Shown here one piece after another: positions 43,201-57,249 of a stretch of DNA of 64,000 nt. Made by a program: the position numbers and the translations under genes. This DNA comes from Streptomyces sp. NBC_00557 (GTDB lineage Bacteria > Actinomycetota > Actinomycetes > Streptomycetales > Streptomycetaceae), in the NCBI RefSeq assembly GCF_036345995.1, contig NZ_CP107796.1, positions 3,534,001 through 3,598,000 of the forward strand, written 5' to 3'. The first letter of the stretch is position 1; every line of letters begins with the position of its first letter. The notes under the pieces are model-generated. The model saw only the letters and a list, made by a program, of their open reading frames with translations, was not told the DNA's origin and ran no database searches.

Positions 43201-43441
43201 GCCTTCTACGCTACGCCCGCCCGGCCCGCGCCTTTGCCGACTAGATGTCGGTCTGGGCGGCGGCTCATAGGCGGCTCCCAGGCGGCCCTCAGCGAGCCCA
43301 TTCACGGGCAAACCGGCCCCGCCATACGAAGTCTTTGCGGTCCCCTGGTCATCCCTGGAACCCACGGCCTCCCCAGCGTTCTACGCGCGTGGTGTCATGC
43401 ACGCGCCACCCCCTCCCCGTGCGCTCACCCAGGAGTCACGC

Positions 43442-44434
43442 ATGCTGCGGAAGGTCCTCACCCGCGCGGCCGTCGCCGTCACCGCCGGCGCCGCCGTCGT
43501 CGCCACCGCCGTCCCCGCGAACGCCGCGAGCTACTCGGCGTTCGCCTTCTCCCGGAGCGGCAGCCAGCCCACGATCTACGACTTCATCGACTCGGCCACC
43601 AGCACGCTCGACATGACGATGTACGAGCTGGAGGACACCACGGCCGTCAACGACCTCATAGCCCTGAAGAACAAGGGTGTCACGGTCCGCGTCATCCTCG
43701 ACCGCCAGCACCAGTCCGCGAACAACTCCGCCTACACGTCCCTGAAGAACGCGGGCATAGGCGTGGTCTGGTCGTCCTCCGCCTACGTCTACACCCACCA
43801 GAAGACGATCACGGTCGACGGCGTCAAGTCCCTGATCATGACCGGGAACCTGACCTCGCAGTACTACACGACCAGCCGCGACTACGGCGTCTTCACCGAC
43901 GACACCCGCGACGTCGCCGCCATCGAGAAGGTCTTCAACGCCGACTACACGGCGACGTCGGTCACCCCGACCGACGGCGACCACCTGCTCTGGTCCCCGA
44001 CCGACTCCCGCAACCGCCTGGTGTCCTTCATCAACTCCGCCACCAAGAGCCTGGACGTGGAGGAGCTGGAGTTCAGCGACAGCACGGTGGTCAACGCGAT
44101 CGTGGCCCGCGCCAAGGCCGGCGTGAAGGTCCGCGTGGTCCTGGAGAATCCCTCCAGCTACTCCAGCCAGGTCTCCGCCATCAAGGCCGCGGGCGGCACG
44201 GTCGTCGGCTACTCCGACCCCAACGGCTTCTACATCCACGCCAAGGCCATGGTCGCCGACTACGGTCTGAGCACCCAGGAGGTCGAGGCCGGCTCCATGA
44301 ACATCAGCAGCAACTCCCTGAGCAACAACCGGGAGCTGGGCATCATCCTCACCGGCACCGGCGTGGCCCAACCGGTGGCACAGACCGTCGAGACGACGTT
44401 CAACAGCGACTACGCGGGTGGCACGCCGGCGTAA
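43442..44434 (+). CDS. secreted phospholipase D-like protein
   Basis: A 330-residue secreted protein. The signal peptide (1-28) ends AVPANA. Two PLD/HKD half-sites follow: His119-x-Lys121-x4-Asp126 in YTHQKTITVDG, with downstream MTGNLTSQYY, and His266-x-Lys268-x4-Asp273 in IHAKAMVADYG, with downstream AGSMNISSNS. Both are complete, so it should be an active phosphodiesterase, acting on phospholipid or nucleic acid outside the cell. The substrate is unknown; similar small two-HKD proteins include nucleases. AGGAG lies upstream of the ATG at 43442. It is divergent from hemB. Confidence 0.88.
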   Translation: MLRKVLTRAAVAVTAGAAVVATAVPANAASYSAFAFSRSGSQPTIYDFIDSATSTLDMTMYELEDTTAVNDLIALKNKGVTVRVILDRQHQSANNSAYTSLKNAGIGVVWSSSAYVYTHQKTITVDGVKSLIMTGNLTSQYYTTSRDYGVFTDDTRDVAAIEKVFNADYTATSVTPTDGDHLLWSPTDSRNRLVSFINSATKSLDVEELEFSDSTVVNAIVARAKAGVKVRVVLENPSSYSSQVSAIKAAGGTVVGYSDPNGFYIHAKAMVADYGLSTQEVEAGSMNISSNSLSNNRELGIILTGTGVAQPVAQTVETTFNSDYAGGTPA

Positions 44435-44538
44435 GTGCCCTCGTACAGGCTCCACCGCTCGGCCCGGTTGGCGCGGCTTCGACCGCCCCACCCGGGCCGA
44501 TCGTTTTCCGCCGCACCAAGAGCATTTCGTCCAGGCGG

Positions 44539-44567
44539 TTTACATATGAGGTGCGTCACTCTACCCT
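44539..44567 (+). promoter_or_regulatory. candidate promoter of the LPMO gene
   Basis: TTTACA (44539-44544) and TACCCT (44562-44567) are separated by exactly 17 nt, a reasonable vegetative-type promoter. The predicted start of transcription falls just before the CebR-type box at 44577, which would let the repressor block initiation. Confidence 0.5.
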
Positions 44568-44576
44568 CCCGAACAA

Positions 44577-44590
44577 TGGGAGCGCTCCCA
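44577..44590. promoter_or_regulatory. CebR operator
   Basis: TGGGAGCGCTCCCA is the exact palindromic consensus bound by CebR, the LacI-family repressor of cellulose and cello-oligosaccharide use in Streptomyces. It lies 49 bp before the LPMO start and next to its candidate promoter. No cebR gene is present in the window. Confidence 0.9.
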
Positions 44591-44638
44591 TAACTCCCTC
44601 ACGTCCTGTACGTCCCTCTGCGAAGGGTCACTCCCCCC

Positions 44639-45724
44639 ATGATCAGACGCAGCAGAACGTCGGCGCTGCTCGCGGCAGTCGCCACCATGCTCTCCGCGTT
44701 AGGGCTGGTCATCTACGGCACGGGAGCCGCGTCGGCCCACGGCGTCGCCATGTTCCCGGGCTCACGCACCTACCTCTGCTACAAGGACGCCATCACGAGC
44801 ACCGGCGCGGTCGACCCGACCAACCCGGCCTGCGCGGCGGCCATCGCGCAGAGCGGTGCGACCTCCCTCTACAACTGGTTCGCGGTGCTGGACTCCAACG
44901 CCGCCGGGCGCGGCGCGGGTTACGTCCCGGACGGCACCATCTGCAGTGCCGGCAACAAGTCGCCGTACGACTTCAGCGGCTACAACCTCGCCCGCGACGA
45001 CTGGCCGAAGACGCACCTGACCTCGGGCTCCACGATCCAGCTGCAGTACAGCAACTGGGCCGCGCACCCGGGTGACTTCCGGGTCTACATCACCAAGCAG
45101 GGCTGGTCCCCCACGACCCCGCTCGCCTGGTCGGACCTGCAACTGCTCTCGACGGTCACCAACCCGCCCGCGTCCGGCTCGCCGGGCACGGACGGCGGCC
45201 ACTACTACTGGAACCAGGCCCTGCCCTCGGGCCGGTCGGGCAACGCGCTGCTGTTCGTCCAGTGGGTGCGGTCGGACAGCAACGAGAACTTCTTCTCCTG
45301 CTCCGACATCGTCTTCGACGGCGGCCACGGCGAGGTGACGGGCATCCGCGGCAGCGGCGACACGACCCCGCCCCCGGACGGCGGCGGTACCACCCCGCCC
45401 CCGGACAACGGCAGCGGTTCCTGCATGGCCGCCTACAGCGTGGACAGCTCCTGGAACGGCGGCTTCCAGGCGACGGTCACGGTCATGAACCACGGCACGT
45501 CGCCGTTGAGCGGCTGGCACGTCGGCTGGACCCCCGGCAGCGGCACGACGATCAGCAGCGTGTGGAACGGCGTCCTGTCCAAGGGCACGAACGGGGCGGT
45601 GACGGTCACCAACGCCGACTACAACCGCACCGTCCCGGCGGACGGCAGCACGACGTTCGGCTTCATCGCGACGTCCTCCGGAAACAACCTCCCGTCGGAC
45701 TCCCTGACCTGCACGAGCCCGTAG
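44639..45724 (+). CDS. AA10 lytic polysaccharide monooxygenase with CBM2 (CelS2-like)
   Basis: A 361-residue secreted copper enzyme. The signal peptide ends ASA with the mature N-terminus His34 (HGVAMFPGSRTYLCY), which forms the histidine brace with His143 in NWAAHPGDFRVY; NENFFSCSDIVF supplies the axial Phe region. Residues 34-238 are the AA10 domain and resemble Streptomyces CelS2/ScLPMO10C, a cellulose C1-oxidiser. A Gly/Thr/Pro linker follows, then a CBM2 (about 260-361) with SCMAAYSVDSSWNGGFQATV. It cleaves crystalline cellulose oxidatively outside the cell. The upstream CebR box and promoter indicate induction by cello-oligosaccharides. Confidence 0.95.
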   Translation: MIRRSRTSALLAAVATMLSALGLVIYGTGAASAHGVAMFPGSRTYLCYKDAITSTGAVDPTNPACAAAIAQSGATSLYNWFAVLDSNAAGRGAGYVPDGTICSAGNKSPYDFSGYNLARDDWPKTHLTSGSTIQLQYSNWAAHPGDFRVYITKQGWSPTTPLAWSDLQLLSTVTNPPASGSPGTDGGHYYWNQALPSGRSGNALLFVQWVRSDSNENFFSCSDIVFDGGHGEVTGIRGSGDTTPPPDGGGTTPPPDNGSGSCMAAYSVDSSWNGGFQATVTVMNHGTSPLSGWHVGWTPGSGTTISSVWNGVLSKGTNGAVTVTNADYNRTVPADGSTTFGFIATSSGNNLPSDSLTCTSP

Positions 45725-45736
45725 CCCCACCCTGAC

Positions 45737-45783
45737 ACGGCGGCCCGTGGGCACCACCGCGGGGAACTCCCACGAGCCGCCGT
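45737..45783. terminator. bidirectional terminator after the LPMO gene
   Basis: ACGGCGGCCCGTGGG (45737-45751) and CCCACGAGCCGCCGT (45769-45783) form a 15-bp stem with a single mismatch. It lies between the convergent LPMO and phosphoribosyltransferase genes. Confidence 0.75.
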
Positions 45784-45799
45784 CCGCACGCGCACGGGG

Positions 45800-46576
45800 T
45801 CATGGAACGCCGGACCCGGAGACGCCACCCGGATGGCTCCAGGGACGCAGGGCGCAGGCGTCCCAGGAAAAGCGTCGTAAGCGTGCCTGCTCGACGTGAT
45901 CGGCCGTGTTGCCGTAGTCGATGTTGAGGTGGCGGCCGAGGACCACGATGGCCACGCTGCCGGCACCGGCCGCCTTCAGTGCGGCGGCCGCGGACTGCGC
46001 GTGGTTGCCCGTGGCCCAGGTGTCATCGATGAGCAGGACGTTCTCGCCCCGGAGGGCCACTGCCTCATAGCGCCCGGAAGAGGCCGCCCGGCCCAGGCCG
46101 TCGGCCTCGGGTGTCGGAACGAGCAGATCACGATAACGGGCGCGAGTGACACCGACCATCTCGGCGAGCATGGTACGGAGGGGATGACCCGGACGCCCGC
46201 TGGTACTGGGCACCATGGTCACGCTGTCGAAGCAGGACACCGCACAGCGAGCCCTGATGCAGTCCTCGTGCTGGGCGAGGAAACGCCATAACACGGCTGC
46301 CAGCCCCATGCGGAAGTACTGCTGCTGACGGCCGACCGCGTTCTTGTACCGCCAGAGTTCGTGGGCATACTGCTCGCCCTTGAGGGCCAGGCTGACCGGG
46401 ACGACGGCGTCAGCCACCCCCGTCCCGAGAAGCTTGGTGGTCTCGTTGCAGGGGCGGCACAGGTAATACCCGATCTTGGCGGGACCCCGACAGACCCGGC
46501 ACACGCCCGGGCCGGGCAGCAGCGGGTGGACCAGGAAGTTGGCGTAGCGGGCGGACAGCCCGACGACGGTGGCCAC
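45800..46576 (-). CDS. phosphoribosyltransferase with N-terminal zinc-binding cysteines (ComF-like)
   Basis: A 258-residue type I phosphoribosyltransferase-fold protein. The N-terminus has two Cys pairs, C26-x2-C29 and C40-x2-C43 (GVCRVCRGPAKIGYYLCRPC), like the zinc ribbon of ComF. The PRPP loop is VLLIDDTWATG at 180-190. The central part has WRYKNAVGRQQQYFRMGLA. It starts with GTG 13 bp after the dprA stop, so the two form a bicistron. ComF and DprA both act in DNA uptake in competent bacteria, but this pair sits in a defence island of a genus without known natural competence. The function is unknown. Confidence 0.82.
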   Translation of the reverse strand: MATVVGLSARYANFLVHPLLPGPGVCRVCRGPAKIGYYLCRPCNETTKLLGTGVADAVVPVSLALKGEQYAHELWRYKNAVGRQQQYFRMGLAAVLWRFLAQHEDCIRARCAVSCFDSVTMVPSTSGRPGHPLRTMLAEMVGVTRARYRDLLVPTPEADGLGRAASSGRYEAVALRGENVLLIDDTWATGNHAQSAAAALKAAGAGSVAIVVLGRHLNIDYGNTADHVEQARLRRFSWDACALRPWSHPGGVSGSGVP

Positions 46577-46589
46577 GCCGGTCCGCCGG

Positions 46590-47474
46590 CTAGCGCCAGG
46601 TCAGCTCGCCCGTGGTGGGGACGAGAGAGTCGAGGTGGCTGAAGACGTCTTCGGGGCCGTCGATCACCGTCGTGTTGGGCCTGGCGGCGTACTCCCTCGC
46701 CCACGTGTGAGTCAGCAGAGAGCGCATGAGGAACACCCGGCGACCGTGTTCCAGGGCAAGCCTGGCCTGCATGCGGGCGCCGCTGCGGTAGGCGGCCTCG
46801 ATCACGACGGTGGCCAGGCTGTAACCGCTCATCACCGCGTTGCGCATGGGGAAGGACGTCTTCGACGGAGCAGCGTCCGGCCAGAACTGGGAGATCAGCA
46901 GCCCCTTCTCGGCGATCTCCTGCTGGAGCTGAGCATTCTGAGGCGGGTAGACCCGGCGCAGGCCGGTTCCGATCACGGCGACGGTACGGCCACCGGCAGC
47001 CAGAGCGCTGCCATGCGCAGCGGTGTCGATGCCTGCAGCCAGCCCGCTGACAACTGTGACGCCACGTTCGGCAAGACCACCCGCGATCGCACGAGCGTGG
47101 GCGACGCCCTCAGGGGTGGGAGTGCGGGTGCCCACGACAGCGACACGAAGGTCGTCGTCGGCGGTCCGTCCCCTCAGGAAGAGAAAGGGGGGCCGCTGGT
47201 GGACCAGCCTCAGATAGAGCGGATAGTCGTCATCCAGGATGGTGACCAGCCGCATGCCCTCGCGCTCCCAGGCGGCGATCTCCGACGCAACACTGTCCAG
47301 GTCGGCCGAGGGGCCGGTGTCGAAGAGCTTCCCCTGGCCTGAACGGTCGAGTGCGTCCTCGAGGACGTCGCGGGCGCTTCCGACCGCTTCGACCTGGTCG
47401 GTCACCTCGGACCATGGACGGTCGCCGCGCCGCAGGAGTGCGACGAGGGCGGCCCGCTCCAGGTCCTGGTCCAT
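46590..47474 (-). CDS. DprA/Smf-like protein
   Basis: A 294-residue protein with the DprA Rossmann domain (about 80-270): DDDYPLYLRLVHQRPPFLFL, VAVVGTRTPTPEG, VVSGLAAGIDTAAHGSALAA, VIGTGLRRVYPPQNAQLQQE, and FPMRNAVMSGYSLATVVIEA. The C-terminal winged helix of canonical DprA is lacking, and there is an N-terminal helical part of about 75 residues. DprA binds single-stranded DNA and loads RecA in transformation; Streptomyces normally keeps another dprA near the topA/ribosomal region, so this is probably a specialised paralogue. The ATG at 47474 lies 7 nt after a TATACT -10 box, so the message may be leaderless. Followed by the phosphoribosyltransferase. Confidence 0.88.
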   Translation of the reverse strand: MDQDLERAALVALLRRGDRPWSEVTDQVEAVGSARDVLEDALDRSGQGKLFDTGPSADLDSVASEIAAWEREGMRLVTILDDDYPLYLRLVHQRPPFLFLRGRTADDDLRVAVVGTRTPTPEGVAHARAIAGGLAERGVTVVSGLAAGIDTAAHGSALAAGGRTVAVIGTGLRRVYPPQNAQLQQEIAEKGLLISQFWPDAAPSKTSFPMRNAVMSGYSLATVVIEAAYRSGARMQARLALEHGRRVFLMRSLLTHTWAREYAARPNTTVIDGPEDVFSHLDSLVPTTGELTWR

Positions 47475-47480
47475 GCGGCA

Positions 47481-47486
47481 AGTATA
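47481..47486 (-). promoter_or_regulatory. -10 element of the dprA-like operon, leaderless start
   Basis: On the minus strand TATACT lies 6 nt before the ATG at 47474. A transcript starting at normal distance would begin at or within a base or two of that ATG. No convincing -35 hexamer or ribosome site is present upstream, which supports a leaderless message. Confidence 0.6.
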
Positions 47487-47545
47487 GGAACGGCTCCCCC
47501 TGACGCAGGCGGCTTGCGCAGACGGCACGGACTGGTGCAGCAGAC

Positions 47546-48526
47546 TCACGCGGCGCATGCGTTCTCCTTCGGGACTGTGCGGGCGGCGCGGCAGTCGCGG
47601 CAGCGGCCCGGGTGTGGGGCGCGGAAGGCGCGGTCGCAGCCGTCGCAGTTCTGAAGGGGATCACGCCTGCGGCCGGCTCCGGCCTCCGCGCCAGTGTCCG
47701 GCCGGGGCGCGGGGCGGGCCGGGAGCGGTACCGGGAGCAGCGCTTCCAGCCGGTAGCCGAGCAGCCTGGCCGGGCTTTTCAGCACGGCGGGGAGGTCGGC
47801 GGTCAGGGCGTGGTGGATGACCGCGGCCGTCGCCCCGCTGTCGAACCAGGCGGTGACGGCGGGCGCGAGCCGGTCCACGTCACGGCGGGAAAGGATGAGC
47901 CGGTCATCGGTCCTGCGGAGGCCCGCGAGCAGGGTGACTGCCTTGTCGTGGCAGGGGTCGCGAGGGCGGCCATGCGCTTCCGGCGTCGCGGCCGGCTTCG
48001 GCGCCACCACGGGCGCGGGGGCAGGTTCGGGCGCGTCCGGCTGGGTGGGTTGGTCGTCCTCCTCGGGCGCTGCCGGAAGATTCGTGCCCGCGCTGAGCCG
48101 ACGGTCTCCGGTACGACGGGTCGGCGCAGGGTGTCCGGCCACGCGGAGCGGCGCCGGGGCGGCGACCGGGGTGTGGTGGGCGTATGTACGCGTGACCAGC
48201 CGACCGGACTCAGTGTGCTCCCGGACCCGCCGCAGATAGCCGTGCGCCTCCAGCTCCCGCAGCGCGGAGGCGATCCGGTCCCGCCCCTCGGGGAAGCGTT
48301 CGGCGAGGCTGCGGATGTCGACCGGGGTGCCCTCGGGCACCGAGAGGATGTGGGTGGCGAGCCCGATGGCGGTCAGCGACAGCTCGCGGTGCTGGGCGAG
48401 GTGGTTGCCGACGACGACGTACTGACCGGACTGGTACGTGCGTACGTGGATGACACCGGAGGGGGTGGTGGATCGTCGAACACCGTGAATCGGGCGCGGG
48501 GCGGCGTTAGGCTTCTTCTCAGCCAT
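47546..48526 (-). CDS. HTH protein with C-terminal zinc ribbon
   Basis: A 326-residue protein. An N-terminal winged helix (about 30-110: RTYQSGQYVVVGNHLAQHRE, LSLTAIGLATHILSVPEGTP, and EGRDRIASALRELEAHGYLR) resembles replication-initiator or phage-type HTH domains common in Streptomyces. A Pro/Ala-rich linker follows, then a helical domain (about 190-280) and a C-terminal C-x2-C...C-x2-C ribbon (NCDGCDRAFRAPHPGRCRDC). It probably binds DNA; its target is unknown. The ATG at 48526 has its only purine-rich ribosome-like site (GAGGAAGAA) some 12-20 nt upstream, so the start is uncertain. It belongs to the same accessory block as the whiJ-like trio. Confidence 0.72.
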   Translation of the reverse strand: MAEKKPNAAPRPIHGVRRSTTPSGVIHVRTYQSGQYVVVGNHLAQHRELSLTAIGLATHILSVPEGTPVDIRSLAERFPEGRDRIASALRELEAHGYLRRVREHTESGRLVTRTYAHHTPVAAPAPLRVAGHPAPTRRTGDRRLSAGTNLPAAPEEDDQPTQPDAPEPAPAPVVAPKPAATPEAHGRPRDPCHDKAVTLLAGLRRTDDRLILSRRDVDRLAPAVTAWFDSGATAAVIHHALTADLPAVLKSPARLLGYRLEALLPVPLPARPAPRPDTGAEAGAGRRRDPLQNCDGCDRAFRAPHPGRCRDCRAARTVPKENACAA

Positions 48527-48725
48527 GGGGAAGGTCTGTTCTTCCTCGTTGGTCAGGCCCTCGCACTGGGATTGCCGTCCCGGCGGGGGCCGATGCATGT
48601 GTGGGATTGTCAGCGCGTTGGTGAGGTGCATATGCCTCGATCGCCTCGGCCTGAGCCTGCACGTCCGAACCGCCGCCACGCCAGCCAGACCGCCCACTTT
48701 CACCCGCCCGAGTGACGGATGCCGG

Positions 48726-48750
48726 GTTTGGTTTGGTTGGTTGGTTATTT
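48726..48750. repeat. GGTTT/GGTT tract
   Basis: A G/T-only run built of GGTTT and GGTT units (AACC repeats on the minus strand) lies in the 267-bp leader region upstream of the HTH gene. It is strikingly unlike the surrounding sequence. The following 25 bp are also unusually T-rich. The purpose is unknown. Confidence 0.6.
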
Positions 48751-48793
48751 CCCCGGGTTCTTTGGTCTTTTACAGCCCGCAGCCCCGGGTCGC

Positions 48794-49261
48794 CTACGAC
48801 CGTGGTACGCCCTTCCTGGCGCCGGTCGCCGGATCCAGCTCCGCCCACACCGTCTTGCACGGCACCGGGCCGAGCCGTACGCCCCACCGGTCCGCCAACT
48901 CCGCGACCAGCAGCAGGCCGTAGCCCGACTCGGCCGGTCCAGTGGCGACAGTTTGTGGAACGGGCAGTACGTCACTACGTGTGTCGGTGACCTCGATTCG
49001 CAGAACGCCCTCGACCGTCACTGTGAGAGCGAGCCGGAAGCTCCGTCCCGGAACCCGGCCGTGCAGCGCGGCGTTCGCCGTCAGCTCTGCGACGATCAGC
49101 CGGGCTGGGTCCAACGGCAGCCCCCAGGAGCGCAGTTGCTCGGTTGCGAGCAGCCGGCCGAGGCGGGCACCGCGTCGGGTCGCGGAGAGGGGCACGCGGA
49201 ACTGGCGCGCCGCAATGGGGAGGGTGGAGATTCGCTCGTTCACGTCACTCAGCGTGTCCAA
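48794..49261 (-). CDS. RsbW-like HATPase (anti-sigma-type ATP-binding protein)
   Basis: A 155-residue stand-alone GHKL ATPase domain: FRVPLSATRRGARLGRLLAT, the N-box IVAELTANAALHG at about 56-68, LRIEVTDTRSDV, and the lid ESGYGLLLVAELADRWGV. Such proteins are encoded next to XRE/DUF397 pairs (the whiJ-like arrangement) throughout Streptomyces and affect development. Divergent from the XRE gene. The start is uncertain: a TTG at 49261 or a GTG at 49243. Confidence 0.83.
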   Translation of the reverse strand: MDTLSDVNERISTLPIAARQFRVPLSATRRGARLGRLLATEQLRSWGLPLDPARLIVAELTANAALHGRVPGRSFRLALTVTVEGVLRIEVTDTRSDVLPVPQTVATGPAESGYGLLLVAELADRWGVRLGPVPCKTVWAELDPATGARKGVPRS

Positions 49262-49364
49262 GCGTGCTTAGCCTGTGAAGAGCGGCGGCCCGTGCGGACG
49301 GGGGCTGTCCGCGTGGTGTGCGGTTGCGTCCGGGCCGTACGGGGTGAGTGGTGACGGGAGGACG

Positions 49365-50204
49365 ATGTACGTGAGCGACTGGGATGCGAGGCCGGAGGAC
49401 GAGGAGGCCGGGGCAGTCATGCGGACGGTCTCACGGCAGTTGAAGCTGTGGCGGGAGGCGGCCGGCCTCACCCAGGCCGCGTTCGGAGCGGCCATCGGGT
49501 ACGGGGAGGAACTCGTCTCCTCGGTGGAGCGGGGGCGGCGGATCCCACGACCGGAGTACCTGGACGCGGCGGATGAGGCGCTGGGTGCGGGCGGCAGGAT
49601 CGCGGCCATGAAGAGGGACTTGGCGGAGGTCCGGTATCCGAAGAAGGTGCGGGACCTCAAAAAGCTGGAGGCGGAGGCCACCGAGCTGTGCGCCTACAAC
49701 AATTCGGTCGTGCACGGGTTGTTGCAGACAGAGGAGTACGCGCGGGCCGTGTTCAGTGCCCGACGTCCCCCCTTCACCGAGGAGGAGGTGGAGCAGCGAC
49801 TGGCGGCGCGCGTCGCACGCCAGGAGATCATCAATGGCAGAACGGCACGCCCTGTCTTCAGCTTTGTTCAGTGCGAGTCGACGCTACGACGCCCCATCGG
49901 GGGCAAGATGGTCATGCGCGGTCAGCTCCAACGGCTGTTGGACCTCGCCGAGTTCCGCAATGTCGATCTCCAGGTGCTGCCGCTCGGGCACGAGGAGAAC
50001 CCGGGGCTCGCTGGTTCGTTCAGACTACTCAGGCTGAAGGACGGCACCACGGCCGGGCACGTGGAGGTGCAGCACATCAGCCGGGTGATCACCGACCCGA
50101 AAGAGGTGCAGCTCCTCGACATGCGCTATGGGATCATCCGGGCACAGGCTCTCAGTACCCGAGAGTCGAAGGCCCTCATCGAGAAGGTGCTTGGAGAGAC
50201 ATGA
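49365..50204 (+). CDS. XRE-family regulator with DUF5753 (WhiJ-like)
   Basis: A 279-residue protein. The N-terminal helix-turn-helix (about 20-75) reads LKLWREAAGLTQAAFGAAIG and EELVSSVERGRRIPRPEYLD. A C-terminal DUF5753 ligand-like domain (about 105-275) has VHGLLQTEEYARAVFSARRP, FVQCESTLRRPIGGKMVMRG and VDLQVLPLGHEENPGLAGSF. It is the regulator of a WhiJ-type trio with the divergent ATPase and the downstream DUF397 gene, which overlaps it by ATGA. In S. coelicolor such loci modulate sporulation; some are treated as toxin-antitoxin-like. GGGAGG precedes the ATG. Confidence 0.9.
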   Translation: MYVSDWDARPEDEEAGAVMRTVSRQLKLWREAAGLTQAAFGAAIGYGEELVSSVERGRRIPRPEYLDAADEALGAGGRIAAMKRDLAEVRYPKKVRDLKKLEAEATELCAYNNSVVHGLLQTEEYARAVFSARRPPFTEEEVEQRLAARVARQEIINGRTARPVFSFVQCESTLRRPIGGKMVMRGQLQRLLDLAEFRNVDLQVLPLGHEENPGLAGSFRLLRLKDGTTAGHVEVQHISRVITDPKEVQLLDMRYGIIRAQALSTRESKALIEKVLGET

Positions 50205-50392
50205 CCCCCGAGAACACCCTTGAGCTGGAGTGGATAAAGAGCAGCTACAGCACGGACGAGGGCCCCGACTGCGTCGAAGTGGCCGCGATCTCGGACCACG
50301 TCCTCGTCCGCGACTCCAAGAACCCCACTGGTCCCCGACTCGCCCTGACGTCCGCCACTTGGTCAGCCTTCCTGCCGTACGCCGCCCGCTGA
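50201..50392 (+). CDS. DUF397 protein
   Basis: A 63-residue DUF397 protein: LEWIKSSYSTDEGPDCVEVA, VLVRDSKNPTGPRLALTSAT, and WSAFLPYA. DUF397 proteins are small partners of XRE/DUF5753 regulators. The ATG overlaps the stop of the XRE gene by 4 bp, so expression is coupled. Confidence 0.92.
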   Translation: MTPENTLELEWIKSSYSTDEGPDCVEVAAISDHVLVRDSKNPTGPRLALTSATWSAFLPYAAR

Positions 50393-50404
50393 AGGCTGAG
50401 GAAC

Positions 50405-50438
50405 GCGGCCCGCGCTCCACTGACAGGGTGCGGGCCGC
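50405..50438. terminator. bidirectional terminator between the DUF397 gene and hsdM
   Basis: GCGGCCCGC (50405-50413) and GCGGGCCGC (50430-50438) form a perfect 9-bp stem around a 16-nt loop, between two convergent genes. Confidence 0.7.
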
Positions 50439-50449
50439 ATCCAGATGCA

Positions 50450-51985
50450 TCACTCGGCGACCGATACGTCTTCGCCCTTGCTGCGCGCCTGCTGCAACGT
50501 CTCCGCGATCGCGGCGAACTCCTCAAGCGCCGCCTGAAGGTCTTCGACGATCTCAGCAGCCAGCACCTCGGGCGCAGGCAGGTTGTCCGCATCGTCGAGG
50601 CTCGGGTCGCGGAGCCAGGTGATGTCGAGGTTGGCCTTGTCGCGGGCCACCAGCTCGTCGTACGTGAACGCCTTGAAACGCTCAGTCTCGACGCGCTTGG
50701 AGCGGTCGTCAGCGCTGTAGCACTGGACGAAGTCCTCCAGGTGGGCCCGGGTGAGCGGGTTCTGCTTGAGGGTGAAGTGCTGGGCGGTACGGAAGTCGTA
50801 GACCCACAGCTTCTCGGTCCACGGCTGGTTGGGGCGGGCCGGCTTGCGTTCGAAGAAGAGCACGTTGGCCTTGACGCCGCCCGCGTAGAAGATGCCAGTG
50901 GGCAGGCGCAGCAGCGTGTGGACGTCGTACTCCTTGAGCAGGCGTCGGCGGATGGTCTCACCCGCACCGCCCTCGAAGAGGACGTTGTCGGGGACGACGA
51001 CGGCCGCCCGGCCGTGGATCTCCAGCAGCGAGGCGATGTGCTGGACGAAGTTGAGCTGCTTGTTGGTCGTGGTGACCCAGAAGTCGCGCCGCTCATAGGC
51101 GATGGCTTCGCGTGCGGCGGATCCGTCGTCGCCGTAGACGGTGATGGACGACTTCTTACCGAAGGGCGGGTTGGCCAGGACCAGGCTCGCGCGCTTGTCG
51201 GGTGGGGCGGCGAGGGCGTCCTTGGTGCGCACGAGCGCGGGGCCGGTGGGCTGGCCGATGCCGTGCAGGAAGAGGTTCATCGCGGCGAGACGGGCGGTGT
51301 TCCTCACCAGCTCGGTGCCCCAGATACCGCCGCTGCTCAGGTGCTTGCGCTGCTCGGGGGTGAGCTGGTTGCCGTACTCGTGGAGGATGTACTCGGCGGC
51401 GGCGAGCAGGAAGCCGCCGGTTCCGCAGGCGGGGTCGGTGATCGTGTCGTCCGGGGTCGGGCGGACGCAGTCGATGATGGCCTGGATGAGCGAGCGGGGG
51501 GTGAAGTACTGTCCGGCGCCGGACTTGATGTCCTCTGCACCCCGGGAGAGCAGTTCCTCGTAGGCATCGCCCTTAATGTCGGTCTTCTGACCCGACCAGT
51601 TCTCCTTGTCGATCAGATCCTTGACGAGGCGCTTGAGCTTGGCGGGGTCGTGGATGCGGTTACGGGCACCGTTGAAGATCAGGTGGAAGGTGGTCCCGGC
51701 CCGCTGGGCGCCGAGGTCTTCGAGCAGTTCCGTATAGGCGGCTTCGAGCGCGGCACCGTCGTACTTCAACAGCTCCGGCCACCCACGGTTCTCCCAGACC
51801 GACCCCTCGGGCATGATCTGCTCGCGGAACATCGGGGGACGGGTCTGCGCCTCGTGCGCCATCTTCAGGAAGACAAGAAGCGTCAACTGCTCAACGTAGT
51901 CGATGGTGGAGACGCCGTCGTCACGCAGGACATGGCAGTAGCTCCAGAGCTTGTCGACAAGCCGACGGGCCTCGGTCGTGGTCAC
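50450..51985 (-). CDS. hsdM: type I restriction-modification DNA methyltransferase subunit
   Basis: A 511-residue HsdM. An N-terminal helical domain (LVDKLWSYCHVLRDDGVSTI) precedes an N6-adenine methyltransferase fold. The SAM motif is DPACGTGGFLLAAAEY near 186 and the catalytic motif is NPPFGKK near 271, the NPPF form of N6-adenine methylases. The C-terminal helices would contact HsdS. It adds methyl groups to the host recognition site. It is the last gene of an hsdR-hsdS-hsdM operon; its ATG overlaps the hsdS stop (ATGA). Confidence 0.95.
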   Translation of the reverse strand: MTTTEARRLVDKLWSYCHVLRDDGVSTIDYVEQLTLLVFLKMAHEAQTRPPMFREQIMPEGSVWENRGWPELLKYDGAALEAAYTELLEDLGAQRAGTTFHLIFNGARNRIHDPAKLKRLVKDLIDKENWSGQKTDIKGDAYEELLSRGAEDIKSGAGQYFTPRSLIQAIIDCVRPTPDDTITDPACGTGGFLLAAAEYILHEYGNQLTPEQRKHLSSGGIWGTELVRNTARLAAMNLFLHGIGQPTGPALVRTKDALAAPPDKRASLVLANPPFGKKSSITVYGDDGSAAREAIAYERRDFWVTTTNKQLNFVQHIASLLEIHGRAAVVVPDNVLFEGGAGETIRRRLLKEYDVHTLLRLPTGIFYAGGVKANVLFFERKPARPNQPWTEKLWVYDFRTAQHFTLKQNPLTRAHLEDFVQCYSADDRSKRVETERFKAFTYDELVARDKANLDITWLRDPSLDDADNLPAPEVLAAEIVEDLQAALEEFAAIAETLQQARSKGEDVSVAE

Positions 51986-53523
51986 GAGGGGATCTCCAGG
52001 TCGAGGGTGGGCTGAGTGGCAGCGGACAGCGCGGGGGCGTTGGGCCGGGGTGCGGGCGGTGCGTCCGGGACACTCTTCCGCTGAGCAGGGGCTCGTCGTG
52101 GTCGCCGACGGGTTGTGGTTGCCCGGGCGGCCTCACGCTCCGCGCGGATACCGGCCAACAGGGCTTCAGCGGGCTCGTCAGAGGGCGCTTGGGAGACCAG
52201 CCGACCGGCGAAGGCTTCGGTAAGCAGGGAGCGGCGAAGGACTTCAGAACGAACCAGCGCAGACCGGACAGCCGCTTCCGTATTTTCAAGCACCGACAGT
52301 TGACGTTCGGTTTCCTGGACAATCCGCCCCTGGAGAGGTTGAGGGGGGATCGGCACAGGGAACTGCTTGATCTTCCGAAGGCTGATCGAGGCGAGATTCA
52401 CACTCTGCTTTCCATTCACCTCGAACCAGCGGCGCCCGAAGCTGTTTGCATGCCAGGCAAGGATCTTGGGATCGAGCAAACCATCACGAACCCGCGCCCG
52501 AAATACGTGGTTTTGATGGATACACTTCTCGATCTGACCTTCCCAAATCCATCCCCTCCCGAGCTTGTCCCGATCTCCGCCCTCATTCAACAGTACGTCG
52601 CCTGCTTGAAGGGTCAGCGCGGCCACCTTCTCAGGCGTGGTGCGAATATAGGAGATGTTTGACAGATCCAAGCGTCCACGTTGCACATTAGCCACTCGGA
52701 GGTAAGGCACTTCCGGCAACTCGGCATCTGACTGCTTTTTGGCGTCTTTTGTGATGCCACCAACCACATCGGCGATCTCACCAAGGCGTCGCCAGGTCCA
52801 CCCTTCGGACAACGGCGGGAGGTCGCCATCGATGCAATCGGCAGCGGAAGGGGCAGGCTGATCACCGGAAGGAGGCAGCCCAAGAAGCTGACCAGTGCCA
52901 GCTTGAAGGAGCAAACGATCACCGTATGCCGAGAGCTTGCGCAGGTTAGACCTTAGAAGATCTTGTGCTCGCACCAGCTGGGCTAGGTGTTCATCGAGCA
53001 CAGCAACGATACGCCGCTGTTCCTCCAGCGGGGGCAGGGGAAGCCGAATCTTTTTTAGCTCGCCTCCAGCAATCCCAGCCTGTCCAGCACTCGTCTTCAC
53101 ATGCTCACGAACCTGAGCACGAGTCTCCTGCCACGAGAACGCGTAGGCCAAAAATTGGGGCACCGCCAACCGTCGATCAACGCGTACCCGAATGAGCTTG
53201 TCCGGGTACGTAAGCGTAGGTGCCGCAGGAGGAACAACTGCACATGCCCCGACCAGTTCCGGGTTGCCGTTGTATCGCGTGAAAAGGAGATCTCCCGGCA
53301 GCGCCAGGCGGTCACCGGCCCGGAGATCTTCCGCTGATTCACCACTGTATCGGAGGTCGCTCAAGTCCAAACGAAGCGGCCGAACTGCCCCAATACGCAG
53401 AATGGGCACACCATTAGGTTCCGTACCCGGACGGGAGACGAAGATTCCGTTACGTACAGACTCAGCAACGTCATCCAGCGCCACCCAAACCCACCCCTTC
53501 GGCAGCCCTGAAGGATTACTCAC
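51982..53523 (-). CDS. hsdS: type I restriction-modification specificity subunit
   Basis: A 513-residue HsdS with two target-recognition domains. The first begins GLPKGWVWVALDDVAES and ends KKIRLPLPPLEEQRRIVAVL, leading to the central helical spacer. The second begins LSEGWTWRRLGEIADVVGG and ends FPVPIPPQPLQGRIVQETE with a second helix. A low-complexity Arg/Pro/Ala tail follows. TRD2 and the spacer region are clearly less GC-rich than the flanking genes, as is common for exchangeable TRDs. Each TRD should read one half of a bipartite site, but the site itself cannot be inferred. It overlaps hsdR and hsdM by 4 bp on each side. Confidence 0.93.
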   Translation of the reverse strand: MSNPSGLPKGWVWVALDDVAESVRNGIFVSRPGTEPNGVPILRIGAVRPLRLDLSDLRYSGESAEDLRAGDRLALPGDLLFTRYNGNPELVGACAVVPPAAPTLTYPDKLIRVRVDRRLAVPQFLAYAFSWQETRAQVREHVKTSAGQAGIAGGELKKIRLPLPPLEEQRRIVAVLDEHLAQLVRAQDLLRSNLRKLSAYGDRLLLQAGTGQLLGLPPSGDQPAPSAADCIDGDLPPLSEGWTWRRLGEIADVVGGITKDAKKQSDAELPEVPYLRVANVQRGRLDLSNISYIRTTPEKVAALTLQAGDVLLNEGGDRDKLGRGWIWEGQIEKCIHQNHVFRARVRDGLLDPKILAWHANSFGRRWFEVNGKQSVNLASISLRKIKQFPVPIPPQPLQGRIVQETERQLSVLENTEAAVRSALVRSEVLRRSLLTEAFAGRLVSQAPSDEPAEALLAGIRAEREAARATTTRRRPRRAPAQRKSVPDAPPAPRPNAPALSAATQPTLDLEIPS

Positions 53524-56500
53524 GCACCCAACTCCCGTCCCAGCTCATCCAAAATCTCAGCCCCCCGGTCCGCCCCGAACTCCCGAAGGAACCCGTCCAC
53601 GCCCCCGCGCTCGATGAAGGGTACGTCCTTCAAGTGATCCGGCTCGATCGCCGCATCCGTCGCTATGACGTCCACGATCCGGTCCAGCCACCACACCTGA
53701 TCCTCGGTGAACATCGCCCCCGCCTGCTCCTGCCGAGCCCGCCACGCCGCGTACCGCTCCTCCACCAGCGCCCGGTACGGCCGGACCTCCTGGTCCAACC
53801 CCAGCTCGAAGCGCAGCAGGCCGACGAGGTCGACCACGCCGGCCGCGCCCCGGGGATGCTTGGCCGCCTTGCCGAGCTGGACGTACGCGTCGTACAGCCG
53901 CGCCGGGGTCCACTGGAACGGAGGACGCTCGATCTTGCGGGCGAGGTCCTTCAGCCGCCGGTAGACCTCCTTCGGGTCCCGGCGCTCGCTGAACGCGAGG
54001 GTGAGCGCGGCGATCTCGTCCTCATGCTCCTTGATGTACTGCTGCCAGGAGGTCACCTTCCGCATCGCCAGCTCGTCCGCCGTGATGCCGCGCGCCTCTT
54101 TCACCTCGTCCACGCTGACCTCGTCTATGACGATGTCGTGGGCGCGGCGCATGGACATCAGCCGGTCCCGCAGCTCGCGGTTGGAGGCGATCGGTTTCAG
54201 CGCCTCCAGCATGTCCTGCCGGACCTGCTTCTCACCGCCGATGCGGCGGGCTTTCTCCTGCTGGTCGGGGTCGACGGACCGGACCAGACCACCGACGATC
54301 TCCTGAAGCGGCTGGTCGGCGAGTTCCTCGATCTCCTCCCGTTCCTCAGGCGTGAGCTGGCGGTCGAGTCGTGCCAGACGGCCTGCCAGCGTGGCGACCT
54401 CGTCTTCCGTCAGTGCCAGACCCGCCGTCTTCGCCATCAGCCGCTCCAGCGGAATCTTCCGCTCGGAAACACGGACCAGCGGGCGGGCGTCCACACGGGG
54501 CGAGTCCGTCACACCGACCGCGTCGACGATCACGAACCGCTCCTTGACCTCGGCGTCAGGCGTCACCGACTGGAACTCCGCCGGGTCCACGGTCCGCGAG
54601 CCCCGCCCCTTCATCTGCTCGAAGTACGCCCAGCTCTTGACGTCCCGCAGGAAGAACACACACTCCAGCGGCGGGATGTCGGTCCCCGTGGCGATCATGT
54701 CGACGGTCACCGCGACCCGCAGCTCGGGGCTGTTGCGAAACGCCTTGATCAGCTCGGCGGGCCGCTTGGCCGCGTGCGTGATCTTCGTGCAGAAGTCGTC
54801 GCCCTCCCCGAACACCTGCCGGACCGTCTGGACGATCTCGTCGGCGTGGTTGTCGTCCACGGCGAAGATCAGCGTCTTGGGCACGTGCGTACGCGACCGC
54901 TGCGCATCCCCGTCCCCCACCGGGGGGAAGATGTCCGTGAACAGGTGCTTGCGGAACGTCTCGACGACGAGCTTGAGCTGGCCCTTGCTGATGACGTGGC
55001 GTCCCAGCTGGGACGCCTTCCACTCCAGGTTCTCCTCCAGCTCCTCGTACCGCTCGCGGCGGGTCTTGCGCTCGCGCATGGGGACGACCGTCTCCGCCGG
55101 GATCGTGCCGCCGTTCTCCCCCAGCTCGGTACGGATCCGGAAGACATCGAAGTCGACGTTCACGCCGTCGGCGACGGCCTGCTCGTACGGGTACTCGCTG
55201 ACGAGGTTCTGGAAGAAGAAGCCGAAGGTCTGCTTGACCGGGGTGGCGGTCAGGCCGACAAGGTGGGCGTCGAAGTATTCGAGCACCGCGCGCCACTTGC
55301 CGTAGATGGAGCGGTGGCACTCGTCGACGACGATGAGGTCGAAGGACTCCGGCGGCAGGTCCGCGTTGTAGCCGACCTCCACCGGCTCGTCGACCAGGTC
55401 GTAGCGGTCGAGGGCGGCGTCCTCGCTGTCGGCGCTCGGGACCTCGCGGCCCGTCAGCGCCAGCCACAGCCGCTGCACCGTGGAGACCACCACGTGAGCC
55501 GAGCCCAGCACGGTGTCACCCGCCAGGCGCTGCACCACGTACAGCTCGGTGAACTTACGGCCGTCGTCCGGGGTGTCGAAGTTCTCGAACTCCGTGGCAG
55601 CCTGGCTGCCCAGATTGTTGCGGTCGACGAGGAACAGAATGCGCTTGGCGCCGGCGTGCTTGAGCAGCCGGTAGCTCTCACTGACCACCGTGTACGTCTT
55701 ACCCGCGCCGGTCGCCATCTGGATGAGGGCGCGCGGGTCGTCCTTGGCCAGGGAGCGCTCCAGACCCGTGATCGCCTTGCGCTGCGCCGGGCGCAGCGGC
55801 TCCGGGTCGAGGAAGGTCTGCGGCAGCCGACGCATCCGGGCGCGCAGAGTCGGCGCGCTCGGGTCGGCCTCCGCCTCCTCGACCCAGCGCGCGATGGTCT
55901 CCGGCTGGTGCACGGCGAAGACGTCACGCGTGCGAGGGGACGGGTCCAGCGCGTTGTGGAAGCGCACGGTGTTGCCGTCGGCGACGTACCGGAAGGGCAG
56001 GCTGGCGCGCCAGGCGCTGAGCTGCTGGCTACGGGTGAGGCCGGTGGCGTAGCGGGCCGCCTGCTGCATGGCTGCCTCCAAGTCGGCGCCCTCCCGCTTG
56101 GCCTCTATGACGCCGACCAGGCGCTGGTCGACGTAGAGGAGGTAGTCGGCGCGTCCGACGGCGGTGGAGACCTCCCGGACGGCGACGCCACGGCCCGCGA
56201 AGAGGTCCTTGGTGCTGTCGTCCTGGACGACCCAGCCCGCCTTCTCCAGGATGCGGTCAAGCTCGGCACGGACCTGCGCCTCGCTCATCGGCGGGCGGGC
56301 GGCCTTCTGCGCGTGGGCGATGAACTCGTCGCGCTGAGAGGCCCCGTCCAGCGGGCGGGCGGCTGAACGGGACTCCATGGCCGGAGCCGTCAGCTCGGTG
56401 ATCTTGTCGCTCAACTCGGCGATCAGGCCCTGCAATGCCGCCCGCTCAGCCTCCGCGCGAGCCAGCTCCGCCTCGGCCTGAGCGCGTGCCGCCTGCTCAC

Positions 56501-57110
56501 GTTCCAGGCGGCTCTGCTTGCCGTCGTAGCGGAGCCGAGCCTCCTCCAGCCGACGGCGGTACGCCTCCAGCTCGGCGCGGAGCTGCTCCAGCTCCTGCTG
56601 GTCGGCGGCGGTCGTAGGCGCAGGCGCGGACGAGGGCGATGCGGGCGCCAGGAAGACCCTGTGCGTGGTGTCGGACGGGTCCAAGGCACGGTGCAGCCAG
56701 TCACCGAGACGGAAGCAGGTCTCGACGGACTGGAGTGCCTCACGCACGTTGGCGTAGTACTCGTGGACCGCCCGGTTCCCCGTCGTACGGACGGCTTCGA
56801 ACCACCCGCGGACCTGCGGGACGAGAACACCGGCCCTGGTGAGCGCGTTGATCCGATCGACCTGCCGGGTTCCAGGGACGGTGAGTCCGAGGAGCGTGAC
56901 CAGGTGCCGCGTCATGACCTCACCGAAGAGGCGGGTTTTCACCATGGCCGCGTGCGGATCGGTGTGCACGTACGACTCTGCCGCGCAGCCGAGCGTCACC
57001 AGCAACGGCTCGTGCTTGAGCAGGTGCCCGAAATTCGACGAGCCCGCAGCGAGACGTGCGACCTGCTCGTCATCCCCGCCGGACGGGCTCCCCACCGCCG
57101 CCGTCACCAT
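53520..57110 (-). CDS. hsdR: type I restriction endonuclease subunit R
   Basis: A 1196-residue HsdR. The N-terminus (about 1-150) is a DUF4145-like helical domain, followed by a Glu/Ala/Arg-rich coiled coil (about 165-240). The nuclease core has the PD-ExK pattern in VGRADYLLYVDQRLVGVIEA, ending EAKREG near 335. Helicase motor motifs include MATGAGKTYT near 465, VDECHRSIYGKW near 597, GLTATP, and TGTDIPPLECVFFLRD in RecA-like domain 2. The ATG at 57110 is chosen for GGGGGAAG; an earlier in-frame start at 57203 lacks one. It translocates and cuts unmodified DNA. First gene of the operon. Confidence 0.93.
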   Translation of the reverse strand: MVTAAVGSPSGGDDEQVARLAAGSSNFGHLLKHEPLLVTLGCAAESYVHTDPHAAMVKTRLFGEVMTRHLVTLLGLTVPGTRQVDRINALTRAGVLVPQVRGWFEAVRTTGNRAVHEYYANVREALQSVETCFRLGDWLHRALDPSDTTHRVFLAPASPSSAPAPTTAADQQELEQLRAELEAYRRRLEEARLRYDGKQSRLEREQAARAQAEAELARAEAERAALQGLIAELSDKITELTAPAMESRSAARPLDGASQRDEFIAHAQKAARPPMSEAQVRAELDRILEKAGWVVQDDSTKDLFAGRGVAVREVSTAVGRADYLLYVDQRLVGVIEAKREGADLEAAMQQAARYATGLTRSQQLSAWRASLPFRYVADGNTVRFHNALDPSPRTRDVFAVHQPETIARWVEEAEADPSAPTLRARMRRLPQTFLDPEPLRPAQRKAITGLERSLAKDDPRALIQMATGAGKTYTVVSESYRLLKHAGAKRILFLVDRNNLGSQAATEFENFDTPDDGRKFTELYVVQRLAGDTVLGSAHVVVSTVQRLWLALTGREVPSADSEDAALDRYDLVDEPVEVGYNADLPPESFDLIVVDECHRSIYGKWRAVLEYFDAHLVGLTATPVKQTFGFFFQNLVSEYPYEQAVADGVNVDFDVFRIRTELGENGGTIPAETVVPMRERKTRRERYEELEENLEWKASQLGRHVISKGQLKLVVETFRKHLFTDIFPPVGDGDAQRSRTHVPKTLIFAVDDNHADEIVQTVRQVFGEGDDFCTKITHAAKRPAELIKAFRNSPELRVAVTVDMIATGTDIPPLECVFFLRDVKSWAYFEQMKGRGSRTVDPAEFQSVTPDAEVKERFVIVDAVGVTDSPRVDARPLVRVSERKIPLERLMAKTAGLALTEDEVATLAGRLARLDRQLTPEEREEIEELADQPLQEIVGGLVRSVDPDQQEKARRIGGEKQVRQDMLEALKPIASNRELRDRLMSMRRAHDIVIDEVSVDEVKEARGITADELAMRKVTSWQQYIKEHEDEIAALTLAFSERRDPKEVYRRLKDLARKIERPPFQWTPARLYDAYVQLGKAAKHPRGAAGVVDLVGLLRFELGLDQEVRPYRALVEERYAAWRARQEQAGAMFTEDQVWWLDRIVDVIATDAAIEPDHLKDVPFIERGGVDGFLREFGADRGAEILDELGRELGA

Positions 57111-57249
57111 ACTTCCCCCAAACAACTGGTCGTCATGTCGCGAGCAAAGCCTTGCAGGATGACATGAACGGACCGGCAGATCAAGGGACTTCACATTGCC
57201 CATGACACTCGATGGCTGACGCCAGCTCAGTAGGCAAGGTAAACAGCGC

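What the first reader, a model, noticed from the sequence alone, without database searches (positions are those of the whole stretch)
45800..47474. DprA-like plus ComF-like phosphoribosyltransferase bicistron in a defence island
The two genes are 13 bp apart and share one promoter. Their families (DprA and ComF) are linked to natural transformation elsewhere, yet this DprA lacks the C-terminal winged helix, and the pair sits next to a type I RM operon. Seen: complete PRPP loop (IDDTWATG), two CxxC pairs, intact DprA nucleotide-site motifs. Inference: a dedicated DNA-sensing plus nucleotide-modifying or signalling module, possibly anti-phage or anti-plasmid, rather than uptake machinery.
Basis: partly seen in the sequence, partly recalled or inferred. 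Interest (0 to 1): 0.7.

Follow-up and report, generated by a model that had tools for sequence, protein, structure and literature searches.

The report
Actinobacterial DprA-like/phosphoribosyltransferase toxin-antitoxin defence pair
Two adjacent Streptomyces genes look like an accessory, movable toxin-antitoxin pair of a kind already shown to protect E. coli from phages, but with a differently built toxin and, in many related bacteria, a DNA-damage (SOS) switch in front of it.

Summary
The bicistron is real: DprA-like gene 47474-46590 and phosphoribosyltransferase (PRTase) gene 46576-45800, minus strand, 13 bp apart. It is accessory, not core: the PRTase is in 13 of 150 Streptomyces genomes, two of them fragments, and a tree separates ShosA-type from housekeeping DprA at 100/98. 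The DprA-like protein matches ShosA (E 5.7e-64), antitoxin of the anti-phage system ShosTA. The PRTase matches ShosT only around the PRPP loop; it lacks the HAD-like region of solved ShosT and has four conserved cysteines, as ComF has. The DprA-like gene lies just upstream of the PRTase in 72 of 80 actinobacterial loci; two integrase-bearing Gordonia phages and a plasmid carry the pair. New here: an SOS box upstream in 29 of 50 non-Streptomyces loci (<=2 mismatches; control 2.5%), against 0 of 20 in the window's Streptomyces clade, which has its own promoter beside the start codon. The restriction-modification neighbour is not a conserved partner. Best reading: a compact actinobacterial branch of ShosTA-type abortive defence; function untested. 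New variant of a known kind.

The parts
46590..47474 (-). DprA-like (ShosA-type) protein, 294 aa; Rossmann/SLOG domain residues 69-254; no SAM_SMF or DprA_WH match; proposed antitoxin/sensor
   Evidence: PF02481 203 bits; PADLOC ShosA 5.7e-64; tree branch 100/98 against housekeeping DprA; no WH/SAM match
45800..46576 (-). Four-cysteine phosphoribosyltransferase, 258 aa (ComF-type layout); proposed toxin
   Evidence: PF00156 17.8 bits, below cut-off 26.3; PADLOC ShosT 2.3e-6 over profile 168-211 of 237 only; AlphaFold2 model pLDDT 94.4, pTM 0.91
46448..46501 (-). Codons of the four-cysteine motif C26-x2-C29 ... C40-x2-C43 (presumed zinc ribbon)
   Evidence: C29, C40, C43 in 51 of 51 aligned rows, C26 in 49 with 2 gaps
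45992..46039 (-). PRPP-loop codons VLLIDDTWATGNHAQS (residues 180-195)
   Evidence: D185 and G190 invariant in A3, but the loop was the search seed, so its conservation is partly by construction
47475..47490 (-). Conserved promoter block TTCCTATACTTGCCGC; TATACT (47481-47486) ends 6 bases before the ATG: probable leaderless mRNA
   Evidence: aligned in 21 Streptomyces loci including the window. A strict pattern, which the window itself misses by one base, occurs 4 times in 150 Streptomyces genomes, all 4 at this gene's start codon (coordinates compared)
47546..48703 (-). HTH_36-like protein, 385 aa; island neighbour
   Evidence: PF13730 22.8 bits, below cut-off 25; 70% in L066, 58% in L074
48794..49261 (-). 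HATPase_c_2 protein, island neighbour
49275..50204 (+). HTH_31/DUF5753 regulator, island neighbour
50450..51985 (-). HsdM (type I RM)
51982..53523 (-). HsdS (type I RM)
53520..57203 (-). HsdR (type I RM)
43397..57203 (.). Variable island between hemB (42208-43365) and hemD (57287-59374)
   Evidence: hemB-hemD gap <=245 bp in 13 of 20 Streptomyces stretches examined, one of the 20 chosen for its relic

Best explanation
The pair is an actinobacterial, compact version of the DprA-like/PRTase toxin-antitoxin defence modules (ShosTA, PsyrTA, RqlHI). Proposed mechanism: the DprA-like protein, encoded first, binds the PRTase and keeps it inactive; its DprA-type fold, which binds DNA in relatives, reads an infection or DNA-damage state such as exposed single-stranded DNA or recombination intermediates. 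When that state changes, the PRTase is released and uses PRPP to disturb purine/nucleotide pools or modify nucleobases, damaging DNA and stopping the cell before the phage is finished. Shown here: gene order and co-inheritance, separation from housekeeping DprA, patchy distribution, carriage by phages and plasmids, a high-confidence model of the PRTase, a LexA-type box upstream of many relatives and a conserved start-proximal promoter in Streptomyces. Inferred from relatives: toxicity, complex formation, anti-phage effect. Unknown: the substrate. The published ShosT activity is described as PRTase plus pyrophosphatase; this toxin has no HAD match, so perhaps only the PRTase half is shared.
For: ShosA 5.7e-64 and PsyrA 1.5e-30 for the DprA-like protein; ShosT 2.3e-6 for the PRTase. 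DprA-like gene just upstream on the same strand in 72 of 80 loci; in 64 of 66 pairs with both ORFs called the genes overlap or lie within 44 bp, start codons chosen by rule. Distance matrices of the two proteins correlate, r 0.86 over 49 pairs and 0.76 over 40 non-Streptomyces pairs, 0 of 2000 permutations as high in each. Two integrase-bearing Gordonia phages and a mobilizable Pseudonocardia plasmid carry the same order. A DprA plus PRTase system from a P2 hotspot protects E. coli from T7 and lambda (PMC9122126, passages). In RqlHI the DprA-like RqlI co-precipitates with full-length RqlH but not with RqlH lacking its PRTase domain, and PRPP-pocket mutants lose most toxicity (PMC4670107, passages). 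ShosT is summarised as PRTase/pyrophosphatase disturbing purine metabolism, with ShosA binding DNA (PMC12593503 citing Pu et al. 2025, passages). LexA-type box enrichment (out of sample 6 of 15), with 11 of 11 lexA promoters as positive control.
Against: No toxicity, binding or phage assay of this branch was seen in any passage read. [quoted passage not shown] The toxin aligns with solved-type ShosT over 50 columns only. 8 of 80 PRTase loci show no DprA-like gene upstream: L090 and L117 are partial or at a contig edge, the other six (L125, L129, L135, L136, L138, L144) look like orphans. L056-L059, L063 and L064 hold a ShosA-type gene whose partner is divergent or unfound under my PRTase profile (L057 is at a contig end), and L060 has no PRTase downstream. 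Defence-gene enrichment around Streptomyces copies is weak. The window has no SOS box, and an E. coli-type LexA pattern in L063 gave one exact match, inside the coding region, with about one <=1-mismatch match expected by chance.
Confidence: 0.6

Rival explanations
1. A selfish addiction module: a toxin-antitoxin pair that stabilises the mobile elements carrying it (phage, plasmid, island), with no real anti-phage benefit.
For: Carried near integrases in two Gordonia phages and on a mobilizable plasmid; patchy; broken copies occur: PRTase in two frames in L083, L084 and L110, no PRTase in L060, a 34-aa relic in G024.
Against: The chromosomal copies compared are under purifying selection, and a DprA plus PRTase relative gave phage protection in E. 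coli.
Confidence: 0.2
2. An SOS-regulated genome-maintenance module: the DprA-like protein helps recombination and the PRTase acts on damaged nucleotides; defence is secondary.
For: LexA-type boxes upstream in 29 of 50 non-Streptomyces loci and in 6 of 15 out-of-sample loci; DprA fold; the review summary says ShosA likely promotes homologous recombination.
Against: Accessory distribution and phage/plasmid carriage; no SOS box in the window's Streptomyces clade; LexA control is also compatible with a toxin-antitoxin or prophage-borne gene.
Confidence: 0.13
3. A natural-transformation (DNA uptake) module, as the names DprA and ComF suggest.
For: ComFC likewise joins a four-cysteine zinc finger to a PRT domain (PMC9005727, passages); this genome has a ComEC-type gene.
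Against: The genome has a separate housekeeping DprA and a separate ComF-like gene at C1:4947311-4947940 (45.3 bits, below that model's cut-off of 233.55); the window PRTase is not among the TIGR00201 matches at E<=0.01; presence is patchy; phages carry the pair.
Confidence: 0.04

Closest known systems
ShosTA (PDB: ShosT 8zvb/8zvc/8zvd/9w2p/9w2q; ShosA 9vzo, and 8zva filed as DprA; the ShosT chains match the protein of phage P2_4C9, L063)
   Same: DprA-like partner of the ShosA family; PRTase gene adjacent and downstream (L063 order); phage carriage
   Different: The L063/solved ShosT is 424 aa with HAD-like (sub-threshold) and PRTase regions; the window PRTase is 258 aa, has no HAD match, has a four-cysteine motif, and aligns with that ShosT over 50 columns only
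PsyrTA / RqlHI
   Same: DprA-like partner restraining a PRTase-bearing toxin that needs its PRPP pocket for toxicity
   Different: The toxin is a RecQ-type helicase-PRTase protein of about 690 aa (PADLOC PsyrT model 689 positions; PMC4670107, passages); no helicase match here
PADLOC short ShosT model PDLC03962 (237 positions); Burkholderia phage Mana pair (L064)
   Same: Short PRTase next to a DprA-like gene
   Different: Mana's PRTase matches that model over 2-213 (1.2e-41); the window's over 168-211 only (2.3e-6)
ComFC (competence)
   Same: Four-Cys zinc finger followed by a PRT domain with a PRPP loop
   Different: Not matched by TIGR00201 in this genome; the position of ComFC T165 is His192 (my ungapped reading by eye); genetic partner and distribution differ

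Membership tests
ShosTA | DprA-like ShosA protein | tested here: met
   PDLC03961 214 bits, profile 64-286 of 303. The model also matches housekeeping DprA at 1e-40 or better in most Streptomyces genomes, so the tree is the stronger evidence
ShosTA | PRTase toxin of the ShosT family over its length | tested here: not met
   Only profile 168-211 of 237 (PDLC03962) and 322-369 of 427 (PDLC03012) match; hhalign to solved-type ShosT covers 50 columns
ShosTA | HAD-like N-terminal region of the studied ShosT | tested here: not met
   PF00702 2.9e-4 and PF13419 4.7e-3, both below cut-off, in L063's ShosT; none in P0001 at E<=0.01
ShosTA | The two genes form an adjacent unit | tested here: met
   72 of 80 loci
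ShosTA | Toxin/antitoxin behaviour and phage protection | not testable with these tools
   Only relatives were assayed, in papers
PsyrTA/RqlHI | RecQ-type helicase fused to PRTase | tested here: not met
   258 aa, no helicase match at E<=0.01
Housekeeping DprA/Smf | Groups with housekeeping DprA | tested here: not met
   78-row tree, 17 housekeeping rows including E. coli Smf, separating branch 100/98
Housekeeping DprA/Smf | C-terminal winged helix (PF17782) | tested here: inconclusive
   No match here, but also none in this genome's own housekeeping DprA; present in E. coli Smf
ComF | Match to the ComF model TIGR00201 | tested here: not met
   The window locus is not among the own-genome matches at E<=0.01
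LexA regulon (relatives) | SOS box TCGAACN4GTTCGA upstream | tested here: met
   29 of 50 non-Streptomyces loci at <=2 mismatches, so not in 21; lexA promoters 11 of 11
LexA regulon (relatives) | LexA binding and induction by DNA damage | not testable with these tools
   sequence evidence only
LexA regulon (window) | SOS box upstream of 47474 | tested here: not met
   Best 5 mismatches; no <=1-mismatch site in the window

The most novel reading that the evidence does not exclude
Across Actinomycetota there is a distinct, SOS-controlled branch of DprA/PRTase immunity. A LexA-repressed operon makes a ShosA-type DNA-binding antitoxin and a compact cysteine-ribbon PRTase toxin without the HAD or helicase region of the studied relatives. 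Cells thereby couple the SOS signal (phage attack, prophage induction) to a PRPP-dependent suicide enzyme. The Streptomyces clade has replaced this switch with its own minimal leaderless promoter.
Probability: 0.4. Interest if true: 0.65.

Novelty: new variant of a known kind. Interest (0 to 1): 0.5.

Why it matters
Actinobacteria and their phages carry a compact form of an experimentally supported defence family whose toxin chemistry is only partly described in what I could read. Because this form has a PRTase with no HAD match, it can show which part of the published ShosT activity (PRTase or pyrophosphatase) is needed for killing. The LexA-type box makes the trigger testable with ordinary DNA-damage reporters, and the Gordonia phages give natural laboratory systems.

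Tried and rejected
Natural-transformation module: rejected as the main reading (separate DprA, ComF-like and ComEC genes in the genome; phage carriage; patchiness).

RM-linked defence operon: rejected as a conserved partnership. L046/L066 has the pair at the same hem site without RM, L074 has only HsdR fragments, and the other 78 loci gave one weak HsdM match (L108) to the window's Hsd proteins. Unrelated RM types would have been missed by that search.

Fixed core locus: rejected. Missing winged helix as proof of specialisation: rejected as not discriminating.

Defence-gene enrichment: one case set (115 proteins, 21 Streptomyces loci) and one control set (121 proteins, 20 random Streptomyces stretches) at E<=1e-10. 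Case, families shown: MkoA 3 proteins, MkoC 2, PDC-S68 2, typeIV_RecD 2, and 1 each for AbiEi, AbiEii, HEC-01A, PD-T4-6 and mad6. Control, families shown: mad3 3, and 1 each for PD-T4-6, mad6, C3a189, IetA and MkoA. Only 25 of 91 and 25 of 41 families were shown, so no statistic was drawn.

LexA controls: I read the lexA loci without turning minus-strand ones round; one search repeats it correctly (11 of 11 best loci at <=2 mismatches: 3 perfect, 5 with one, 3 with two; 2 of 12 weaker PF01726 loci, both with two). The replication set (25 loci) was read strand-aware. Dropped: L188, L190, L193, L195 (no DprA-like gene found), L191 and L194 (start not in the locus or gene broken), and L172, L173, L174, L177, which one search showed to be the same DNA as L092, L116, L128 and L132. 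That leaves 15: 2 perfect, 1 with one, 3 with two mismatches, 9 without.

Fold comparison of the PRTase model and a model of the DprA-like protein were not obtained.

Full report
What is there. On the minus strand, 47474-46590 encodes a 294-aa DprA-like protein and 46576-45800 a 258-aa PRTase, 13 bp apart. Both have coding-type codon-position GC and are under purifying selection against eight orthologues. The window is contig C1:3534001-3598000 of a 9.02-Mb genome.

Not the housekeeping DprA. The genome has a second DprA at C1:2395437-2396060. In 150 Streptomyces genomes a ShosA-model search finds a DprA-type match at E<=1e-40 in 143; by my reading of its ranked list, 15 carry a ShosA-type copy of 187.8 bits or more, above a gap to 183.6, and 14 of these 15 list a second match as well (not G146). 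The PRTase is found in 13 of 150, two of them fragments, and in 21 of 394 genomes of the class, 18 of 137 genera. In a 78-row tree, 61 ShosA-type rows (four from phages and one from a plasmid) and 17 housekeeping rows (16 Streptomyces and E. coli Smf) lie on two sides of one branch, 100/98. Several rows have long branches and the root is a midpoint, so the split is shown but not its direction.

Which family. PADLOC gives ShosA 5.7e-64, PsyrA 1.5e-30; ShosT 2.3e-6, PsyrT 1.1e-3. The PDB holds ShosT and ShosA. Solved ShosT matches the phage P2_4C9 protein over its full length, and that protein has a HAD-like region before the PRTase (sub-threshold Pfam matches). The window PRTase has no HAD match at E<=0.01; it has four cysteines kept in its relatives (C29, C40, C43 in 51 of 51 rows; C26 in 49 with 2 gaps), a layout like ComFC (PMC9005727, passages). 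It aligns with solved-type ShosT over 50 columns only. The AlphaFold2 model is confident (pLDDT 94.4, pTM 0.91), but no fold search could be run.

A unit. A scan of genome contigs with the PRTase alignment gave 211 confirmed relatives, of which the best 80 were kept (its seed was the PRPP loop). By a test that asks for a same-strand DprA-like gene just upstream, 72 of 80 have one; the others are L090, L117, L125, L129, L135, L136, L138 and L144. In 64 of 66 pairs with both ORFs called, the genes overlap or lie within 44 bp. Pairwise distances of the two proteins correlate (r 0.86, 49 pairs; 0.76 for 40 non-Streptomyces pairs). Gordonia phages Vasanti and Bosnia carry the pair near tyrosine integrases, Bosnia also near a repressor, and a Pseudonocardia plasmid carries it too.

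The island. hemB and hemD are at most 245 bp apart in 13 of 20 Streptomyces stretches; six have longer insertions (one of them G024, chosen for its relic) and one showed no hemD. In the window the gap holds PLDc, LPMO, the pair, HTH_36, HATPase, HTH_31/DUF5753 and HsdMSR. In Streptomyces sp. IMTB 2501 (L046/L066) the same site has PLDc, the pair and the three regulators, and tblastn finds neither LPMO nor RM. In L074 two HsdR fragments remain. In G024 the regulators remain with a 34-aa PRTase relic and no DprA-like match. So this appears to be a turnover site where RM and the pair come and go separately.

Control of expression. In 21 Streptomyces loci, window included, the sequence just before the start codon is conserved (TTCC-TATACT-T...; T at -16 in 21 of 21, TATACT positions in 19 or 20) while DNA further upstream is not (the L073 start was moved by 12 bases to align). 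A strict form of the pattern, which the window misses by one base, occurs 4 times in 150 genomes, each time at this gene's start (coordinates compared). TATACT 6 bases before ATG suggests a leaderless transcript (inference). Outside Streptomyces the operon often carries an SOS box: of 50 loci 8 match TCGAACN4GTTCGA perfectly, 19 with at most one and 29 with at most two mismatches, 21 do not; random stretches of the same loci give 0, 0.32% and 2.5% (10,000 draws), and three scrambled motifs give at most 1 of 50 at two mismatches. Fourteen boxes begin 26-36 bases before the start. Related loci are not independent, so binomial tails would overstate the case; the hits carry 13 taxon labels, 9 hits being Pseudonocardiaceae. 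An out-of-sample set gives 6 of 15 after removing duplicates. In 11 genomes (10 hosts of relatives plus the window's) the best lexA locus has the box in 11 of 11, and the one in the window's genome agrees with the S. venezuelae lexA-2 box (PMC9380542, passages). The window's Streptomyces clade: 0 of 20, and the window itself has none; of six other Streptomyces ShosA-type loci (L053-L058) only L057 has a two-mismatch site. Vasanti has a one-mismatch box 43 bases upstream.

How it may work. [quoted passage not shown] A DprA plus PRTase system from a P2 hotspot protects from T7 and lambda (PMC9122126, passages). ShosT is summarised as a PRTase and pyrophosphatase that disturbs purine metabolism, ShosA as DNA-binding, T7 Gp0.7 as trigger (PMC12593503 citing Pu et al. 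2025, passages; the original is not held). I therefore propose a restrained PRTase released on infection or damage. Toxicity, complex formation and substrate are not shown for this branch.

Novelty. ShosTA is already reported in actinobacterial prophages (PMC10023795, passage). A search for papers holding at least four of DprA, LexA, SOS box, phosphoribosyltransferase, ShosTA and toxin-antitoxin returned only PMC9122126, with no occurrence of LexA or SOS box. So an SOS box upstream of this pair was not found in print by that search of that library, which lacks most subscription papers; I made no separate literature search for the cysteine-ribbon toxin layout.

Noticed in passing
L125:3734-4465, L129:7944-8687, L135:7998-8573, L136:4619-5464, L138:7998-8687, L144:7995-8732: Six relatives of the PRTase without a DprA-like gene found in the locus. 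By eye L138 and L144 lie beside LigD-like genes and L125 and L136 beside PIG-L-like deacetylases (recalled, not tested). Possibly a domesticated branch.
   Followed up: partly
L056:9827-10582 and L058:8597-9340: A second Streptomyces ShosA-type lineage has a different PRTase partner with weak double-zinc-ribbon matches.
   Followed up: partly
window 43397-57203: The hemB-hemD interval is a variable insertion site in Streptomyces; L221, L233, L234 and L237 also have longer gaps with no match to the window's genes.
   Followed up: partly
L074:4533-5020: Fragments of an HsdR 69-78% identical to the window's, left between hemD and the HTH_36 gene.
   Followed up: yes
window 44639-45724: LPMO_10 plus CBM_2 cellulose-oxidising enzyme gene next to the PRTase; not found at this site in L046.
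   Followed up: no
L181/L191 (G327:C9) and L179/L192 (G498:C191): Two PRTase copies on opposite strands close together in one genome, in two genomes: possible double or divergent systems.
   Followed up: no
L083, L084, L110 (PRTase in two frames), L060 (PRTase not found), L052, L059 and L093 (DprA-like gene in two frames): Broken copies of either gene; mostly draft assemblies, so sequencing errors are possible.
   Followed up: no
window 46590-47558: An in-frame upstream ATG would lengthen the DprA-like ORF to 322 aa and overlap the HTH_36 gene; conservation favours 47474.
   Followed up: yes
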